From Prevotella sp. (GTDB lineage: Bacteria > Bacteroidota > Bacteroidia > Bacteroidales > Bacteroidaceae), in the NCBI GenBank assembly GCA_017960525.1, contig JAGCZA010000083.1:1-34741 (forward strand): DNA of 34,741 nt. The letters are read 5' to 3'. The position numbers and the translations under genes were made by a program. The notes beneath the pieces were generated by a model, which saw only the letters and a program-made list of their open reading frames with translations, was not told the DNA's origin and searched no databases. Of the stretch, positions 15,591-29,200 are shown piece after piece (positions within the stretch are counted from its first letter, which is position 1; the number at the start of each line of letters is the position of its first letter).

Positions 15591-15934
15591 AAGACTTCCC
15601 AGACAGGATGACGCCGGAACAGGCGCGGACATTTCGCGACGACGTGCTGAACATTGTCAGCCAGATTCCACCTGGCCGCGTCACCACCTACGGCCACATT
15701 GCCGTCCTCGCGGGCTGGCCCAGCCACTCACGAATGGTAGGCCGCACCCTGCGCTACACGCATGGAGCCGAGTTGCTCCCTTGCCACCGCGTGGTAAACA
15801 TCACCGGTCGCACCGCCCCAGGCTGGAGCCGTCAGCGCTCCCTGTTAGAGGAAGAAGGTGTCACCTTCAGTCCCAATGGCCACGTGGATATGCGAAAGCA
15901 CTTTTGGGGCAAAGACATTACGGCAGTTACCTAA
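15587..15934 (+). CDS. MGMT/Ogt-family DNA alkyl-repair protein (short form)
   Basis: A 115-residue protein consisting of just the DNA-binding and active-site domain of O6-alkylguanine-DNA alkyltransferases. The methyl-acceptor motif is PCHRV at 65-69, so Cys66 is present. Alkyltransferase-like proteins of similar size usually have Trp there (PWHR), so this one may be a genuine suicide methyltransferase. The arginine-finger segment SRMVGRTLR and helix-turn-helix GRVTTYGHIAVLAG are visible. The ATG overlaps the stop of the preceding gene as ATGA, so translation is coupled to the ECF sigma-factor operon. The end of the gene (TTACGGCAGTTACC) resembles the repeat unit that immediately follows. 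Confidence 0.85.
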   Translation: MKDFPDRMTPEQARTFRDDVLNIVSQIPPGRVTTYGHIAVLAGWPSHSRMVGRTLRYTHGAELLPCHRVVNITGRTAPGWSRQRSLLEEEGVTFSPNGHVDMRKHFWGKDITAVT

Positions 15935-16021
15935 AAAGGTTACGGCAATTGGGGTAAAAGGTTACGGCATTTGGGGTAAAAGGTTACGGCAATTGGGCTA
16001 AAAGGTTACGGCAATTTGGGA
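15934..16021. repeat. Four-copy 22-bp tandem array (core TTACGGCAATTGGGG) upstream of lepA
   Basis: Four adjacent 22-bp units (15934, 15956, 15978, 16000) each read AAAAGG, then TTACGGCA, then a variable A/T-A/T-T and a G-run. They differ at only a few positions. They start directly after the alkyltransferase stop codon and end about 75 bp before the lepA promoter box. The rest of the 192-bp gap holds A-rich DNA (about 16045-16075). Confidence 0.92.
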
Positions 16022-16094
16022 GGGGGGAAATGGACGCGAAAAGGTAAAGTTACTAAAAAAAGCAAAAAAAATAAGCGGTATGGTTTTTTTTGCT

Positions 16095-17912: not shown

Positions 17913-18006
17913 TGTTGAGAGTTGAGAGTTTAGAGTTTAGAGACTTTAGACTCTCACGCTGAAGACATACTAAAGTCACTAATCTCTAAACACTAAACAC
18001 TCAACA
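17913..18006. repeat. 94-bp inverted-repeat element (copy 1), lepA-crp gap
   Basis: The outer ends are TGTTGAG at 17913 and its complement CTCAACA ending at 18006. The 37-bp arms match at all but about five positions and enclose a 20-bp centre. The arms are built from the near-repeats GTTGAGAG and GTTTAGAG and end in GACTTTAG. A second copy of the same design lies at 27070-27165. It fills the gap between lepA and the Crp-like gene, and as RNA it would form a long hairpin. Confidence 0.85.
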
Positions 18007-22222: not shown

Positions 22223-23725
22223 ATGAAACAAGCAAGAAGCATTGGCCTGCTATGGCAATTAGTGACGCTGGCACTCCTGTTGCCAGTGGCCGTTTTCGCC
22301 CAAATGCCGGAACGCACATCGGAAGCGACGGCACGTAAATTCACGTTGAACCTGACCGACGACGGGAAGGCGCAGATGGTGTGCTTCCTGCCCAAGGCTC
22401 CTTCGGGGAAAGCCGTTGTAGGCATTCCTGGCGGCGGCTACTCCATGTTGTCAAACACCCACGAGGGAACACTGGCCCACGGTTGGATGAACGAGCAGGG
22501 CATTGCCTACTTCGTGGTGAACTACCGTCTGCCCGACGGCGACCGCACCAAGCCCATCAGCGACGTGGAGCAGGGTTTCCGCATCGTCCGCGACTCGGCC
22601 CAGGTGTGGGGCATCAACCCGCACGATGTGGGCATTATGGGCTTCTCGGCTGGCGGGCACCTCTCGTCGGTCATTTCCACGCACTCGCCACTTGAGGTGC
22701 GCCCCGACTTCACCATTCTGTTCTATCCCGTCATTTCAATGGACGAGCGCGTGTCGCACGTGTGGTCGTGCCGCAACTTCCTCGGCGAAGACCAGAAGAA
22801 TCCCGCCATCGTGCGCGACTTCTCTACCGACAAGGCCGTGCGCCGACACCTCACTCCGCCCGCCTGTATCATCATGGCCAGCGACGACCGTCTCGTGCCG
22901 CCCGTGACCAACGGCGTGCAATACTACTCGGCCATGCGCAACGCCGGCAACGAGTGCGCCATGTATATCTATCCTACTGGCGACCACGGTTTCGGCTTCG
23001 GCCCTTGGTTCAAGTACCACAACCAGATGCTCACCGACCTGGGCAACTGGTTGAAGGCCCGCCATACACCGAAACCCGACGCCATCAGAGTGGCTTGTGT
23101 CGGCAATAGCATCACCGACGGCCACGGTATTGATATGGCTCCCGCCTACGGTTATCCCGCCGAACTCCAGAAGATGCTTGGCGACAAGTATTGGGTAAAG
23201 AACTTCGGCGTGAGTGGCCGCACGATGCTCAACAAGGGCGACTTGCCTTATATGAACGAAATGGCTTGGCGCGACGCCATAGCCTTCAAGCCCGACATCG
23301 TCATCATCAAGTTGGGCACCAACGATTCGAAGCCTCAGAACTGGCAACACGGCGCGGAGTTCAAGGCCGACCTGCAACAGATGATTACCACGTTGCGCCC
23401 CGACCTTGCCCAGCTGGCAACAAAGAAGAAGAAAAAGAAGGGGAAGAAAACCGTAGAACCTCGACCCACACCTGAGATTTACCTCTGCACACCCATCCCC
23501 GCCTTCAAGACGACGTGGAATATCAGCGATGAGGTCATCACCAACAACATCATTCCCATCCAGCAGGAGGTGGCCAAGGAGTACGACCTGAAGGTCATCG
23601 ACTTGCACACCCTCTTTGCCAACGATGGTGACAAGATGCTCTCCGACGGAATCCACCCCGACGGAAAAGGTGCCCGCCGAATGGCCGAAATCATTGCCGC
23701 AGAGACTGGTCTGAAGGAGCAATAA
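22223..23725 (+). CDS. Exported two-domain esterase (alpha/beta hydrolase + SGNH/GDSL)
   Basis: A 500-residue protein with a signal peptide (cut after VFA, near 26). The first half is an alpha/beta hydrolase: oxyanion loop GIPGGGYS at 67-74, nucleophile elbow GFSAGG with Ser142, acid Asp in ASDDRLV near 221, and His255 in GDHGFGFG. The second half (from about 288) is an SGNH hydrolase with block I GNSITDG (Ser296), block II Gly in GVSGRT, block III GTND (Asn367) and block V DGIHP (Asp475, His478). Both active sites look intact. A lysine-rich insert KKKKKKGKK (401-409) interrupts the SGNH domain. Such pairs occur among acetyl-xylan and feruloyl esterases. Beside GH115 the likely job is removing acyl groups from xylan; the substrates are inferred. 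Confidence 0.82.
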   Translation: MKQARSIGLLWQLVTLALLLPVAVFAQMPERTSEATARKFTLNLTDDGKAQMVCFLPKAPSGKAVVGIPGGGYSMLSNTHEGTLAHGWMNEQGIAYFVVNYRLPDGDRTKPISDVEQGFRIVRDSAQVWGINPHDVGIMGFSAGGHLSSVISTHSPLEVRPDFTILFYPVISMDERVSHVWSCRNFLGEDQKNPAIVRDFSTDKAVRRHLTPPACIIMASDDRLVPPVTNGVQYYSAMRNAGNECAMYIYPTGDHGFGFGPWFKYHNQMLTDLGNWLKARHTPKPDAIRVACVGNSITDGHGIDMAPAYGYPAELQKMLGDKYWVKNFGVSGRTMLNKGDLPYMNEMAWRDAIAFKPDIVIIKLGTNDSKPQNWQHGAEFKADLQQMITTLRPDLAQLATKKKKKKGKKTVEPRPTPEIYLCTPIPAFKTTWNISDEVITNNIIPIQQEVAKEYDLKVIDLHTLFANDGDKMLSDGIHPDGKGARRMAEIIAAETGLKEQ

Positions 23726-24746
23726 ACAGACGCTCCAGTTCGGCAGTATCCTCCTCGGTGGTAGCCCAACTAGTGACGAACCGACAGACTGTGTGGTGCT
23801 CATCGAAAGGGCACCACACTTCATATCCGATGTGCTGGCGCAGACGCTCCATATCATCGTTGGGCATAACAAAGAACTGCTGGTTGGTAGGCGAGTCGAT
23901 ATAGGGCCGATAGCCCAAACCATCTACGAAAAGACGGCGCAGGCGCATAGCCTGCCCAACAGCCTGGCGGCCAATCTCGAAATAAAGCCGTGACGAGAAC
24001 AGGGCCTCGAACTGCACGCCGACGACGCGGCTCTTGGCCAACAAGGCTCCGTGGCGCTTGATGCGACTGAGCATGTGGGCGGGTGCATCGCCCTTTGGGA
24101 ACACCACGGCCTCGCCACAAAGTGCACCGCATTTCGTGCCGCCGATATAGAAGACATCGACCGTCTGCGCCAGCAATGGCAACGTCACGTCTGGACTTGC
24201 CGCCAAACCGTAGGCCAGGCGTGCACCATCGACATAAAGCGACAGGCCGTACTCCTGACAGACATCGTGCAAGGCCGTCAGTTCCCCGGCGGTATAGAGC
24301 GTGCCCAACTCGGTGGGGAACGTCGTATAGACCATCCCGGGCCGCACCATGTGCTCGGCGGTCTCGTCGGCGAAATAGGCCTTGAGCCACGCCCGCAGTT
24401 CCTCCACATCCAGTTTCCCATCGTGAGCCGGCAGGGCAATGACCTTATGGCCAGTATACTCCACCGCACCAGCCTCGTGCACATTGATGTGGCCCGTCTC
24501 TGCGCAAAGCACGCCCTCGTAGGGTTGCAACACGCAATTGATGATGGTGGCGTTGGTCTGGGTGCCGCCAGCCAAAAACCACACCTGAGCGTCGGGTGCC
24601 TCGCACGCCTTGCGAATCAGTTGGCGTGCCGACTGGCTGAAGCGGTCGTCGCCATAGCTCTGCGTCCGCTCGCCGTTGGTTTCCACTATGTGGCGCAACA
24701 CGTCCTCATGCGCCCCGTTGTTGTAATCGCTTTCCAGATGAACCAT
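23691..24746 (-). CDS. Low-specificity threonine aldolase / beta-eliminating lyase family
   Basis: A 351-residue PLP enzyme of fold type I, expected to split threonine (or allo-threonine) into glycine and acetaldehyde. The cofactor lysine is Lys205 in YIGGTKCGAL. VDGARLAYG at 172-180 holds the Asp that pairs with the pyridine nitrogen. GGTQTNAT near 60-67 binds phosphate, and SYGDD near 30 is also typical. I start it at the ATG at 24746 (MVHLESDYNNGAHEDVL). Its last 35 bases overlap the end of the convergent esterase gene. Side activities on other beta-hydroxy amino acids are common in this family. Confidence 0.88.
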   Translation of the reverse strand: MVHLESDYNNGAHEDVLRHIVETNGERTQSYGDDRFSQSARQLIRKACEAPDAQVWFLAGGTQTNATIINCVLQPYEGVLCAETGHINVHEAGAVEYTGHKVIALPAHDGKLDVEELRAWLKAYFADETAEHMVRPGMVYTTFPTELGTLYTAGELTALHDVCQEYGLSLYVDGARLAYGLAASPDVTLPLLAQTVDVFYIGGTKCGALCGEAVVFPKGDAPAHMLSRIKRHGALLAKSRVVGVQFEALFSSRLYFEIGRQAVGQAMRLRRLFVDGLGYRPYIDSPTNQQFFVMPNDDMERLRQHIGYEVWCPFDEHHTVCRFVTSWATTEEDTAELERLFIAPSDQSLRQ

Positions 24747-24799: not shown

Positions 24800-24865
24800 T
24801 TTGGACGAACCAAACTGGGAGTTTGCCGTAAGCAAACTATGAGTTTGGACGAACCAAATTTTAAA
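24800..24865. repeat. Three-copy 22-bp array with a compensated hairpin core
   Basis: The outer copies (24800-24821 and 24844-24865) have the core TTTGGACGAACCAAA, the reverse complement of the core in the uvrD-mutL array. The middle copy (24822-24843) reads TTTGCCGTAAGCAAA: both arms have changed, so pairing is kept, and the loop now carries the TTGCCGTAA core seen in the lepA array. The array lies between the threonine-aldolase start and the stop of the GlsB-like gene. Confidence 0.9.
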
Positions 24866-24870
24866 GGGGC

Positions 24871-25116
24871 TTACTTCCTCAGGAATGAGGTGATGTAGAC
24901 AATGATGATGGCGCCGATGGTGCCAGTACCAATCTGACCCAGTATGCCTCCCCACTCAGGGATTTCGAGCAGACTGAAGAGCCAACCGCAGAGGGCACTA
25001 CCAAAAAGACCGAGCAGCACGTTGATGATGCAGCCGTAGCCTTCGCCTTTGATTAACTTGCCGGCAAGGAAGCCGGCCAAACCTCCAATGATGAGAGAAC
25101 CAATAAAACCTGTCAT
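24871..25116 (-). CDS. GlsB/YeaQ/YmgE-family small membrane protein
   Basis: An 81-residue, very hydrophobic protein with three glycine-rich spans: FIGSLIIGGLAGFLAG, CIINVLLGLFGSALCGWLF and IGTGTIGAIIIVYI. The pattern GGLAGFLAGKLIKGEGYG followed by NVLLGLFGS is the hallmark of the GlsB/YeaQ/YmgE family (transglycosylase-associated protein Pfam entry), which is linked to stress responses and has no known enzymatic role. Family length is about 80-85 residues, so it is complete. It has its own TAATTTTG box upstream and a 22-bp repeat array just after its stop. Confidence 0.9.
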   Translation of the reverse strand: MTGFIGSLIIGGLAGFLAGKLIKGEGYGCIINVLLGLFGSALCGWLFSLLEIPEWGGILGQIGTGTIGAIIIVYITSFLRK

Positions 25117-25262: not shown

Positions 25263-26171
25263 ATGGAAAAGACGAAAAAGAACGAGGTGCTGCTTCACAC
25301 TACTGAAATGTTGTCGCACCTGAGCGAGAAAGAATTGTCGATGATGCCTGCCGGCTCGGCACCCCTCCCTTCTGTGGAGGAAGTGCGCCGCATCGTGAGC
25401 CTTTGCAAGGATATTTTCTTCACCGACTACTTCCATAAGCGGCAGAGCGACAACCAGATGCGTGCCTACCACATAGGCGTGAGTATGGACGAACTGTTCA
25501 CCCTGCTACTCCGTCAGATTGGGCGCGGTCTTCAGTTTTGCGAGGAGTGTAGCGAGGGCGACGTGCTCTGTGCCGCCGAGAAGACCACTATGCACTTCAT
25601 CAAGGCATTGCCCGAAGTGAAACGCCTGCTCTATACCGACGTGGAGGCGATGTTCCAGAGCGACCCTGCGGCCAGGAACTATGGCGAGGTGATTTACTGT
25701 TATCCTGTGATGAACACGATGACGCACTACCGCATCGCCCACGTATTGCACCAGATGGAGGTTCCCGTCATTCCGCGCATCATCACCGAACTTGCCCACT
25801 CACGCACGGGCATCGACATCCACCCTGGCGCACAGATAGGCGAGTATTTTGCCATCGACCACGGCACGGGTGTGGTCATCGGCGAAACGGCCATCATCGG
25901 CTCACACGTGACACTCTACCAAGGTGTGACCCTGGGCGCAAAGAGTTTCAAGTACGATGCGCAGGGCAATATGCTCAACATTCCGCGCCATCCCATCATC
26001 GAGGACCACGTGACCATCTACTCCAACGCCTCCATCCTGGGCCGCATCACCATTGGCCACCACTCCGTGATTGGCGGCAATATCTGGGTGACAACCGATG
26101 TGCCGCCCTACTCACGCATCCAGCAGAGCAAGGCCGTAGATGCCACGTTCCAAGGAGGACTGGGGATTTAA
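25263..26171 (+). CDS. cysE: Serine O-acetyltransferase
   Basis: A 302-residue enzyme transferring acetyl from acetyl-CoA to serine, the first step of cysteine synthesis. The N-terminal half is helical (HTTEMLSHLSEKELSMM onward). The C-terminal third is a left-handed beta-helix of hexapeptide repeats: IDIHPGAQIGEYFAIDHGTG, VVIGETAIIGSHVTLYQGVT, and IIEDHVTIYSNASILGRITI. The active-site His lies in IDHGTGVVIGE. The start at 25263 (MEKTKKNEVLL) is the first ATG after the promoter box. No O-acetylserine sulfhydrylase gene lies nearby, so cysE stands alone here. A hairpin follows the stop. Confidence 0.93.
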   Translation: MEKTKKNEVLLHTTEMLSHLSEKELSMMPAGSAPLPSVEEVRRIVSLCKDIFFTDYFHKRQSDNQMRAYHIGVSMDELFTLLLRQIGRGLQFCEECSEGDVLCAAEKTTMHFIKALPEVKRLLYTDVEAMFQSDPAARNYGEVIYCYPVMNTMTHYRIAHVLHQMEVPVIPRIITELAHSRTGIDIHPGAQIGEYFAIDHGTGVVIGETAIIGSHVTLYQGVTLGAKSFKYDAQGNMLNIPRHPIIEDHVTIYSNASILGRITIGHHSVIGGNIWVTTDVPPYSRIQQSKAVDATFQGGLGI

Positions 26172-26188
26172 GTGATAAGTGAAAAGTG

Positions 26189-26217
26189 ATAAGTGAAAAG
26201 TGAGAAGTTTCACTTAT
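26189..26217. terminator. Hairpin between the convergent cysE and beta-helix genes
   Basis: A perfect 10-bp stem, ATAAGTGAAA and TTTCACTTAT, encloses a 9-nt loop. It lies 17 bp after the cysE stop and overlaps the beta-helix gene's stop codon, so it could end transcription from both sides. It is AT-rich with no long T-run, so strength is uncertain. The preceding bases (26171-26200) are near-repeats of GTGATAAGTGAAAA. Confidence 0.5.
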
Positions 26218-29200
26218 AGCCGCTTTAGCCAGTAAACTTGGCCAGCACGACAGTCAGCCACGCCGAAGACGCCCTTCAGCGTGGTTTTCTTTTGCACTTG
26301 CTTCATTTCGCCTGTGGCGGCATTGATGGTATAGACGGCATACTTGCCCTCCTCTACGGGCAGGCTCACCATATCGCCAAGAGCATAGACCAGATAGCCT
26401 ACACCCTGCCCTGCCAAGACCACGCATCCCTCACCTCCATCAAGCGGCTGCATACGGGAGAGGTCTTTGAGCAGTTGGGAGTGACTGCCCAAAGGCACGT
26501 TGGATAGCGAGCCTCCAGCCATCAGGATGGCCCAGCCGTAACTGGGATATTGCTGGGCATAGAAAGTGACGGCCTTCTGCGAGTAGCGGTCGCGCATCTC
26601 ACGCACGGCACGGTAGGCCTCAGCGAAGCCCGTCTTGCCCACCTTCATCTTGCGCATCCATTGGCGCGGAGCCAGGTTGCGGCCTCCCTCTGGTGCCCAA
26701 AGGCCATCGGTGTTATAGTGCCAATAGCGGATGTCAATGATATCGACCACCTTGGCCAGCACAGGGTCGGCCAGCAGACTGTCCTGCACATCGCGGGTGC
26801 AACTCAGGGCAATGAGCGGGTGACGACCCGTCTCCTGCTCCCACTCGGCAATGGTCTGAAGCCAAAAGCGGGTGAAGTGGAGCGGCCCCGTGTATTCGGC
26901 ACTGATGAGGTGCACCACGTTTGGCTGGTCTTTCACCTGCTCTAAGCACATACGAATATATTGGCGGTGGAGGGGACGCAACACGGGGTCTTGCTCATTG
27001 TAGAACTGCTCGGCCATAAAGATGCGCTTGTCGCCAGCGAAAGGCACGGGTTCGGGGAAAGGACATTCCTGTTGAGAGTTTAGAGTTGAGAGTTGAGAGA
27101 CTTTAGTTTTGCTGGCGGAAGGACTAATGTCACTTAACTCTGAACTCTTAGCACTCATCTGAACATTGTTCACTGGCCGCCAAGGGCAGTCCACCCAATG
27201 GGCACCAGCCTCGAGGATATTGTGCTGGAAGTAGTGGTGGTGGAAGAGCAGGATATCCGCTTCTGCCGCCTTGTCGGCAAACTGGCGCAGACGGCTCCAG
27301 TACCACTCGTTAGGGCGTGTAAGGTCGTAGCGGGAGAGGCCGTCCCAAGCCGTGCCCTGACCAGAACGGGCGAAAGGCTGTTCGTAGAAGGGAGCCCACA
27401 CGTCGCCGTCGGCACGTCGCACCCGCTCGTGGTCGGTGCGCCGGAGGTCGTACCACAGACCATAGTTATGGCTCAATGAACTGTAGTGATGGGCTTTCAG
27501 GAAGGCCACAACGCTATCGATGCGGTCAGTCCACCCCCTACCCTCGCGTCCTGGCACAAAACGTGTGATGGCCGGCTTGGCCTCCCGTTGGCAGAAGTTG
27601 TCCTTCACCCGTCCGCTCCACCAGGGAATGGCATACTGGTCGCCAGTAATGACCAGACCGCCAGAGCCGACAAGCAAGCCGGCGTTGAGGGAAATAGAGT
27701 TATTAAGTTCTCTTGGACTTATGGAACTCATCGTAGCCACAGGTTTCACAGGACTTGTAGGAGCCGTAAAGGGGATGCTGTCTATCCACATTTCCATAGT
27801 GAGGCGGGGAGTGGTAAGCGACTCCTGGGCCATACGCATCGCCTCTTCGGCGGTGGGCGAACTGGTGGCATTGGTGGACATAGGCAGAAGATACGGGTTC
27901 ACCGTGCTCTTCACACGCTGCTGTAGTTGGTGGTAGAAGAGCGAGCGGGGCTGCACGTGGTCGTTGCTGCTTGTCCAGTTGCCATTGCCGGTGAGCGTAC
28001 CCCAGCAGCCGTGGGCGCTGGAGCGGTTGAGGGAGTCGGGCGAATAGCACTCTATGGTCGACGCCGTACATTGCCAGAACATAGAGTTGGCCGTGTTCCA
28101 CCCCGTACCAAATTGGAACTGCTCCAGATTGGCAAAGCGCAGGTCGTGGCCGTCGATGTTCACAATGTCGAAGAGCAGGCCTGGCGCCCACGAGCCGATG
28201 CTCCCGCTGAAACCCAGCGACTGCTCGCCCTCGCATTGCACAAAGGCGTTTGGACCTGCCGCACAATAGCCTGCGGCAAAGTCGTGGATGCCTTGGCGCG
28301 ACACACACCGCTGGAAGAGCGTCTGCTGCCCTCTGGTGAGGAACACCTGGCGGCGCCAGCCACCAATCTCGCTGACAGGCTCTTGGGCTATGCAATCCTC
28401 GACGGTGACACGGCTGACGGCGCGTTGCAGGTTGACGGCAGAGCCAGCGAAATGGCGGAACGAAACGCGGCGCACCCAGCAGTCACGCACGTTGTCCATA
28501 AAGACCGCATCCCAGCAATGGTCCTCGTCCTTGGGGTTCCAGTCGTTCACGGCACTCTCCAATGTCAGGTTCTCCACGCCGCACTCCGTCAGTTCGCCCC
28601 CGTGGCGTCCTGCCACGATGTAGGCACCACCATATTTCTTAGTAAGAGCAGTAGTGATGGGGGCGTCAATCTGAAGCGTATCGCCGCGCACACCCAGGAC
28701 GGTACGATCCCAGCGCAACTCAATATCAGTTGGCTTCCAACCCGTATAGTCCAGTCCACCACCGAAGTCGTCCATACGAAGACTCTCTATCCACTCCCAA
28801 GTGCAGGGGCGCACAATGTCGATACGGTCTCCCGCTTTTACCTTTGACCACTTGCCAACGAACTTCGTGCTGCCTGCGGGAACAATGTCGGAAGCGATGA
28901 AAAGCGTGTCTGCTCCACGCCCCTGCTCCTTAACACCTTCTATATAAAGGAGTGCGCCACGGTCTGTGCCATGCTTCACCAGACGGGTCTTATCGCGCCC
29001 CATACCCCTGAGTGTCACACCTGAAGCAGAGATGCGCAACGGCTGGTCAAGACGGAAAACGCCCTCGCCCAATAGCACGGCGCCACGATGGCCGTTGGTA
29101 TCGGGCTTGCGCCGCGACACCTCGTCGATGGCCTGCTGGATGAGGGCCGAGCAGTCGCCGTCTCGCCACTCCACGTAAGCAGCCACCGCCACGCTGGGCA

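What the first reader, a model, noticed from the sequence alone, without database searches (positions are those of the whole stretch)
24800..24865. 22-bp hairpin array with a compensatory double change that links two repeat types
Seen: three units in exact 22-bp register. The outer cores are TTTGG-ACGAA-CCAAA; the middle one is TTTGC-CGTAA-GCAAA. Both arms changed together, so the pairing survives, which suggests that the hairpin, or a dyad-binding protein, is under selection. The middle loop and arm (TTGCCGTAA) are the reverse complement of the TTACGGCAA core of the lepA array, so this copy bridges the hairpin-type and TTACGGCA-type arrays. 22 bp is about two helical turns, which would present each site on the same DNA face. 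Function unknown.
Basis: partly seen in the sequence, partly recalled or inferred. Interest (0 to 1): 0.75.

Follow-up and report, generated by a model that had tools for sequence, protein, structure and literature searches.

The report
Genome-wide 22-bp dyad repeat arrays
The three short repeats are one of probably more than a hundred similar arrays scattered between the genes of this gut bacterium, and relatives have arrays with the same 22-bp spacing but other sequences, so the spacing seems to be what is kept rather than the hairpin.

Summary
Units lie at 24800, 24822 and 24844 in exact 22-bp register. TTTGGACGAACCAAA occurs 347 times in this 4-Mb genome (reversed control 0) and in 0 of 79 other sampled genomes of the genus. 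Of 25 arrays in 419 kb none lies inside a gene; 22 have 3-4 units. In intergenic DNA a score for period plus dyad peaks only at 22 bp, here and in relatives whose arrays have other sequences; small samples outside the family gave 1 hit in 312 gaps. Three further genomes have their own genome-wide 22-bp family.

The hairpin argument fails. Arm changes do not covary: 6 compensated against 107 one-sided in 247 units here, and nothing beyond chance in 125 units of a relative. The middle unit's double change is one member of a recurrent internal-unit variant whose sisters are uncompensated.

Best reading: dispersed extragenic repeats built as arrays of double-stranded protein-binding dyads at a two-turn pitch. 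In two relatives arrays lie inside repeats of about 430 bp. No binding protein was found, and RAYT transposases do not track the arrays.

The parts
24800..24814 (+). unit 1, TTTGG-ACGAA-CCAAA
24815..24821 (+). spacer CTGGGAG; CT-NNN-AG completes the second dyad with the neighbouring arms
24822..24836 (+). unit 2, variant TTTGC-CGTAA-GCAAA (internal-position variant)
24837..24843 (+). spacer CTATGAG
24844..24858 (+). unit 3, TTTGG-ACGAA-CCAAA
2215..2295 (-). second array of the same family, 4 units (the outermost degenerate), between a UvrD-type helicase gene and mutL
15918..16027 (+). 22-bp array of another sequence, TTACGGCAATTGGGGTAAAAGG type, 5 units, before lepA
23691..24746 (-). gene downstream of the array: beta-eliminating lyase family (PF01212); start placed by my own gene caller
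24871..25116 (-). gene upstream of the array: transglycosylase-associated protein family (PF04226)

Best explanation
The array is one copy of a dispersed extragenic repeat whose working part is a row of 3 to about 8 double-stranded DNA dyads at a fixed pitch of 22 bp, about two helical turns. A dimeric (or higher) DNA-binding protein most likely sits on each dyad on nearly the same face and binds its neighbours cooperatively. The sequence it reads differs between species or clades, while the pitch and the dyad layout stay. Shown: 22-bp dihedral geometry in many members of the family, intergenic placement, genome-wide copy number, sequence-specific units without arm covariation, local unit duplication, and larger host repeats in two relatives. 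Inferred: the protein, cooperativity, and what occupancy does (insulating or silencing neighbours, or marking the element for its own spread).
For:: the intergenic period-plus-dyad score peaks only at 22 (G000 17 of 171 gaps, G016 13 of 125, genus mix 6 of 192, other genera of the family 6 of 109, G024 3 of 90, named relatives 3 of 245; shuffled means 0-0.15; other periods from 16 to 30 give 0-2 each). G016 motif with strong position-specific information, 76 of 86 neighbour spacings below 80 bp exactly 22, no covariation; no excess of compensated changes in G000; 25 arrays, none inside a called gene (two overlap a gene end by 1 and 22 bp), 22 of 25 with 3 or 4 units, either strand; 13 adjacent identical spacers against 3.6 expected; genome-wide families with 64, 37 and 214 matches and controls 0; core variants only at internal positions, 9 of 9.
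Against: No binding protein was identified, and the genes beside arrays are miscellaneous (20 downstream genes examined). The half-site spacing inside the 22 bp differs between species (7+5+7+3 here, 6+8+6+2 in G080), which one conserved dimer would not obviously allow. Arrays fold better than shuffles as RNA (mean z -4.7 for 17 in G000, -2.8 for 16 in G016), though they were picked for dyads. Loop flips within register (7 of 72 arrays; G080) suit a palindrome-based process as well. G000 arrays share little flank, so copying of whole arrays is only weakly supported there.
Confidence: 0.5

Rival explanations
1. The hairpin itself matters: the arrays act as single-stranded DNA or RNA stem-loops, for example as REP-like elements moved by a Y1 (RAYT) transposase or as mRNA stabilisers or terminators.
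For: Dyads fold better than shuffles. Register-preserving loop flips. In codirectional gaps 23 of 30 arrays lie nearer the upstream stop codon (G016 6 of 10; counted). Array-like scores near Y1_Tnp genes in 3 of 3 loci of G016 and in the one G088 locus; in G016 arrays are dense, and by my own estimate 3 of 3 would happen by chance in about 3 cases in 100.
Against: No arm covariation in 247 and 125 units. No Y1_Tnp match in 9 of the 18 genomes searched (G239, G024, G080, G084, G086, G085, G130, G003, G099), and each of these 9 has at least one array. No array within 1.5 kb of the Y1_Tnp gene fetched from G000, G236, G065, G053, G004 and G010 (some of these loci are shorter on one side). 4 of 25 arrays are between divergent genes. 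No Rfam match over an array.
Confidence: 0.25
2. The arrays are the recognition core of a non-autonomous mobile element (MITE-like, about 430 bp in some species), bound by its transposase as the 22-bp sites at Tn7 or Mu ends are (recalled); in G000 only the core remains.
For: G239: 12 of 19 distinct loci share about 430-450 bp around the array, 2 share 250-290 bp, 5 share only about 95-165 bp with L264. G016: 8 of 26 array gaps take part in alignments of 390 bp or more, 65-84% identity. A profile of the G239 element matches three G016 array gaps at E 1.6e-6, 4.3e-5 and 3.6e-4, in its right part. 7 of 10 G080 array ends begin AAAGAAA.
Against: A profile-profile comparison of the two elements was not significant (hhalign probability 0.5, E 0.11). 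No clear terminal inverted repeat or target duplication was seen by eye at the G239 ends (12 copies). Flanks of G000 arrays show only a short base-composition pattern and extended homology in a minority of pairs, part of it from another repeat. No transposase linked. The G239 element has no match in the plasmid and phage collections, and the G000 double unit none in viral contigs.
Confidence: 0.17
3. Neutral tandem slippage and gene conversion, with no function.
For: Excess of identical neighbouring spacers shows unit duplication; heptamer arrays of other kinds exist too.
Against: Slippage does not fix one period across unrelated sequences, nor keep degenerate units in 22-bp register, nor conserve the core while spacers vary (170 of 247 units exact).
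Confidence: 0.06

Closest known systems
REP/BIME elements, GTAG- and CGTC-tagged (PMC3733652; abstract and passages seen)
   Same: Short extragenic palindromes in high copy, some families species-specific, some clustered; CGTC repeats are reported from Bacteroidetes.
   Different: REPs carry GTAG or CGTC at one end of the stem, which I do not see in the G000 or G080 units; CGTC families there are rarely clustered and mostly head-to-head, whereas these units are mostly head-to-tail at one fixed pitch that is shared by unrelated sequences.
MITEs and intergenic repeat units (ERIC/RU, Correia; recalled)
   Same: Dispersed non-coding repeats of 100-450 bp between genes; the G239 and G016 host repeats are of this size.
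   Different: No terminal inverted repeats or target duplications shown; the core is a tandem dyad array; in G000 most arrays stand without a shared host repeat.
Iterons and transposon-end site arrays (R6K iterons, Tn7 and Mu 22-bp sites; recalled)
   Same: Protein-binding sites repeated at about 22 bp.
   Different: Those lie at one origin or at transposon ends; these are scattered over many intergenic loci and are dyadic.
CRISPR arrays (recalled)
   Same: Palindromic direct repeats.
   Different: Spacers are 7 bp, mostly drawn from a few triplets within a fixed frame; no long unique spacers.

Membership tests
REP elements | short palindromic stem-loop, extragenic, high copy | tested here: met
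   347 copies; 0 of 25 sampled arrays inside a gene
REP elements | GTAG or CGTC tag at one end of the stem | tested here: not met
   In TTTGGACGAACCAAA the only CGTC (reverse strand) spans loop and stem, not an end; the G080 unit GAGTCCATGTGCGCGGACTC has neither tag. Not tested for every array sequence
RAYT-linked (GTAG-type) REPs | RAYT gene in the genome, usually beside repeats (the paper's table lists this for GTAG, not for CGTC families) | tested here: not met
   No Y1_Tnp match in 9 of 18 genomes, all 9 with arrays; G000 has one partial copy without arrays nearby; G016 has three, and G088 one weak match, with an array nearby
MITE | terminal inverted repeats and target-site duplication | tested here: inconclusive
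   G239 ends inspected by eye in 12 copies: conserved ends, no clear TIR or TSD; G000 left and right flanks do not match each other more than permuted ones (p 0.58)
Structured RNA element | compensatory covariation in stems | tested here: not met
Structured RNA element | match to a known Rfam family | tested here: not met
   No match over an array at gathering scores; the two hits were a tmRNA and a cobalamin riboswitch elsewhere in two loci; one chance-level miRNA match (E 0.41) in the G239 element
Intrinsic terminator | stem followed by a T run, at 3' ends | tested here: inconclusive
   64 of 128 G000 array ends have TTTT within 16 bases outward, but 7 of 10 G080 ends begin AAAGAAA, and 4 of 25 arrays are between divergent genes
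Protein-binding dyad array | a protein that binds the unit | not testable with these tools
   no candidate found; needs pull-down or footprinting
Protein-binding dyad array | sequence-specific, position-weighted motif in fixed register without stem covariation | tested here: met
   G016; G000
CRISPR | unique spacers of about 26-72 bp (recalled) | tested here: not met
   spacers are 7 bp with recurrent triplets

The most novel reading that the evidence does not exclude
A family-wide DNA-binding system of Bacteroidaceae measures two helical turns and coats dyad arrays at a fixed 22-bp pitch, while the sequence it recognises is replaced between species or clades and the genome's arrays follow, a bacterial counterpart of fast-turnover recognition systems.
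Probability: 0.25. Interest if true: 0.85.

Novelty: new variant of a known kind. Interest (0 to 1): 0.6.

Why it matters
Dispersed bacterial repeats are usually defined by their sequence. Here the sequence differs between most species compared, yet the 22-bp dihedral layout stays, so a physical constraint seems to be conserved. That makes it testable which protein or process measures 22 bp, and why genomes carry it at tens to probably more than a hundred loci.

Tried and rejected
Hairpin under selection: rejected as a proven claim because of the covariation tests (no significance test was run for the G000 columns, only observed against expected). REP membership: tag test not met, and RAYT genes do not track arrays. 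Phased A-tract bending as the common factor: W/S spectra show an 11-bp component in G016 but not in the 20 other-species arrays. A common ACG core: 14 of 20 units against 8.8 expected, p 0.009 before correction for 32 trinucleotides, kept only as a lead. Whole-array copying in G000: weak; in 66 arrays 12 shared ordered spacer pairs against 6.4 or 6.2 (p 0.04 and 0.03), partly due to identical neighbours; I dropped two near-duplicate arrays and those with fewer than two spacers. Positional conservation: mutL was found in 60 genomes, 30 loci were given, 5 of the 30 have an array upstream (G000, three from one clade sharing a motif, and one other); three loci (L187, L190, L191) were probably read on the wrong strand by my script and say nothing. 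Viral contigs: no match to the double unit, and no relative of the neighbouring gene. The first dihedral scan over whole pieces was confounded by codon periodicity and was replaced by the intergenic scan, which left out L084-L092, L094 and two pieces of 340 bases or less. The lag scans alone also show heptamer arrays.

Full report
Observation. The window holds three units in exact 22-bp register at 24800, 24822 and 24844, as described. A second array of the same family lies at 2215-2295 and a 22-bp array of another sequence (TTACGGCA type) at 15918-16027 before lepA. In the genome (3.97 Mb, 146 contigs) the 15-mer TTTGGACGAACCAAA occurs 347 times on both strands, its reversed control 0 times; it occurs in 0 of 79 other genomes sampled from the genus. 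The double unit with up to 3 mismatches occurs 308 times here and in 0 of 60 other genomes of the family sample, 0 of 40 of the order sample and 0 of 40 of the phylum sample.

Anatomy. I looked at 72 arrays from about a fifth of the genome, partly chosen because hits were listed there; 35 have 3 units and 28 have 4. The unit is AGTTTGG-ACGAA-CCAAACT-NNN, two alternating dyads whose axes lie 11 bp apart. Of 247 units within 6 mismatches of the core, 170 are exact. The middle triplet of the spacer falls mostly into five reverse-complement pairs (CAT/ATG 40, CCC/GGG 37, ACC/GGT 28, CCT/AGG 20, CAC/GTG 10, of 176 junctions kept). Identical spacers sit side by side 13 times against 3.6 expected, so arrays grow by unit duplication. 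Core variants of the CGTAA and ACGGA-GCAAA kinds lie at internal positions in 9 of 9 cases, with one more degenerate relative at an array end (L225). From 347 exact copies and 170 exact copies in 72 arrays I estimate about 150 arrays in the genome.

Placement. Of 25 arrays in 419 kb none lies inside a called gene, two overlapping a gene end by 1 and 22 bp; 19 are between codirectional genes, 4 between divergent, 1 between convergent, 1 at the edge of a fetched piece; either strand is used (genes called by my own script). Twenty genes downstream of arrays are miscellaneous: mutL, glycoside hydrolases, cytidylate kinase, orotidine decarboxylase and others, four without a Pfam match at 1e-5. Over all groups the orientation classes of array gaps (30 codirectional, 11 divergent, 9 convergent) resemble those of all gaps (490, 134, 91). 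In codirectional gaps 23 of 30 arrays are nearer the upstream stop codon, 6 of 10 in G016.

Test of the hairpin claim. If the stem were selected, arm changes should be compensated. In G000 the five arm pairs show 6 compensated, 6 uncompensated double and 107 one-sided changes, and pairing is within 0.02 of that expected from independent columns; the second dyad shows 1 compensated and 173 one-sided. The common TTAGG variant is uncompensated. The double change in the finding is real but isolated; its sister units read TTTGC-CGTAA-TCAAA and TTTGC-CGTAA-CCAAA. Arrays do fold better than shuffles as RNA, but they were selected for dyads, so this does not decide.

Geometry in relatives. A score that joins periodicity and dyad symmetry was run on intergenic DNA for periods 16-30. 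At 0.74 or more, period 22 gives 17 of 171 gaps in G000, 13 of 125 in G016, 3 of 90 in G024, 6 of 192 in pieces of 14 genus-mates, 6 of 109 in pieces of 13 other genera of the family and 3 of 245 in 39 named loci; shuffles give 0 to 0.15 (run for periods 20, 22 and 24 only). Every other period gives 0 to 2. Ten genomes of other families of the order give 0 of 94, ten of the phylum 1 of 74 (shuffle 0.3), Collinsella loci 0 of 144. The phylum hit (L177:10591) looks like a four-unit array, so the limit of the pattern is not fixed. Outside three deeper genomes the pieces were at most 40 kb per genome, so absence in a genome is not shown. Of the 13 other genera 4 showed an array at 0.71 or more. 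The arrays have different sequences: GAGTCC-8-GGACTC-2 in G080, CTTTTAC-3-GTAAAAG-5 in G010, GTAGAAACGTTTGCGTTTCTAT in G024, and so on; the total stays 22.

Predictions that held. G080, found through one array, has 64 copies with up to 2 mismatches in 18 loci, at steps of 22 bp or a multiple, except one step of 36 bp, with strand flips that keep register; control 0. G016 has 214 double units, control 0. In the genome of Prevotella aff. ruminicola Tc2-24 (G239; an isolate by its record title) one array found among 54 gaps of about 113 kb (shuffle 0.1) led to 37 matches genome-wide, control 0. Three genus-mates with mutL proteins 78-80% alike share a motif and an array before mutL, so motifs can be shared within a clade; of the relatives of G000 with 71-74% mutL identity, L186 and L188 have none there.

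Larger host repeats. In G239 an array of about 160 bp lies inside a non-coding repeat of about 430-450 bp in 12 of 19 distinct loci fetched; 2 share 250-290 bp and 5 only about 95-165 bp with L264. In G016, 8 of 26 array gaps take part in alignments of 390 bp or more at 65-84% identity. A profile of the G239 element finds three G016 array gaps at E 1.6e-6 to 3.6e-4, in its right part, but a profile-profile comparison was not significant. In G080, 7 of 10 array ends begin AAAGAAA. G000 flanks show only a T-rich, then G+C-rich pattern and extended homology in a minority of pairs, some of it from a separate GGGGAGGGG repeat. Rfam holds no match over the arrays or the G239 element at gathering scores; the G239 element has no match in the plasmid and phage collections.

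Candidate machinery. Y1_Tnp (RAYT) genes were sought in 18 genomes over two searches: none in 9 (G239, G024, G080, G084, G086, G085, G130, G003, G099), all of which have arrays; the G000 copy is partial and has no array nearby; no array was near the copy fetched from G236, G065, G053, G004 or G010; all three G016 copies and the one weak G088 match have an array within 1.5 kb, in G016 among dense arrays. A RAYT link is therefore not general, though a local link in G016 is not excluded. CGTC-type REPs, which the literature reports from Bacteroidetes and does not tie to transposase genes (PMC3733652, passages), remain the nearest named kind, without the end tag.

Conclusion. The array is an ordinary member of a large, species-specific family here, and that family is one case of a wider pattern: dyad arrays at a fixed 22-bp pitch in many relatives. 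I favour protein-bound dyads within dispersed repeats. The protein, the function and the spreading mechanism are unproven. Literature searches (listings only, plus passages of PMC5771137 and PMC3733652) showed no description of this pattern; the library lacks most subscription papers.

Noticed in passing
window 17914-17942, 26169-26208, 27071-27099: Tandem heptamers (GTTGAGA, TAAGTGA types); lags that are multiples of 7 are also raised in relatives.
   Followed up: no
L241, L235, L020 near the arrays: A separate dispersed repeat with inverted CCCCTCCC/GGGGAGGGG blocks lies beside several arrays.
   Followed up: partly
L022:15060-15214: An ACGAA array followed within about 6 bp by a TTACGGCA array of alternating orientation, so two array types can abut.
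   Followed up: partly
L019:14349-14429, with related units beside arrays in L217 and L235: Another 22-bp unit, GTTAGAAGGYATATAACTCCCA, uses the same spacer as the ACGAA units.
   Followed up: partly
L144:1019-1633 (G000 contig C28): A partial Y1_Tnp-like reading frame whose HUH motif looks altered (motif recalled), probably a degenerate RAYT or IS200-like gene.
   Followed up: partly
L285:192: A 22-bp tandem repeat in G088 about 1.2 kb from a weak Y1_Tnp match inside a long open frame.
   Followed up: no
L121:3184 and L129:13763 (G024): Pairs of near-perfect 22-bp palindromes (AGTGATAAGGGCCTTATCACT type) 44 bp apart with an unrelated 22 bp between them.
   Followed up: no
L177:10591: A four-unit 22-bp dyad array in a genome of the phylum sample (same class, outside the order), the only hit there at 0.74.
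   Followed up: no
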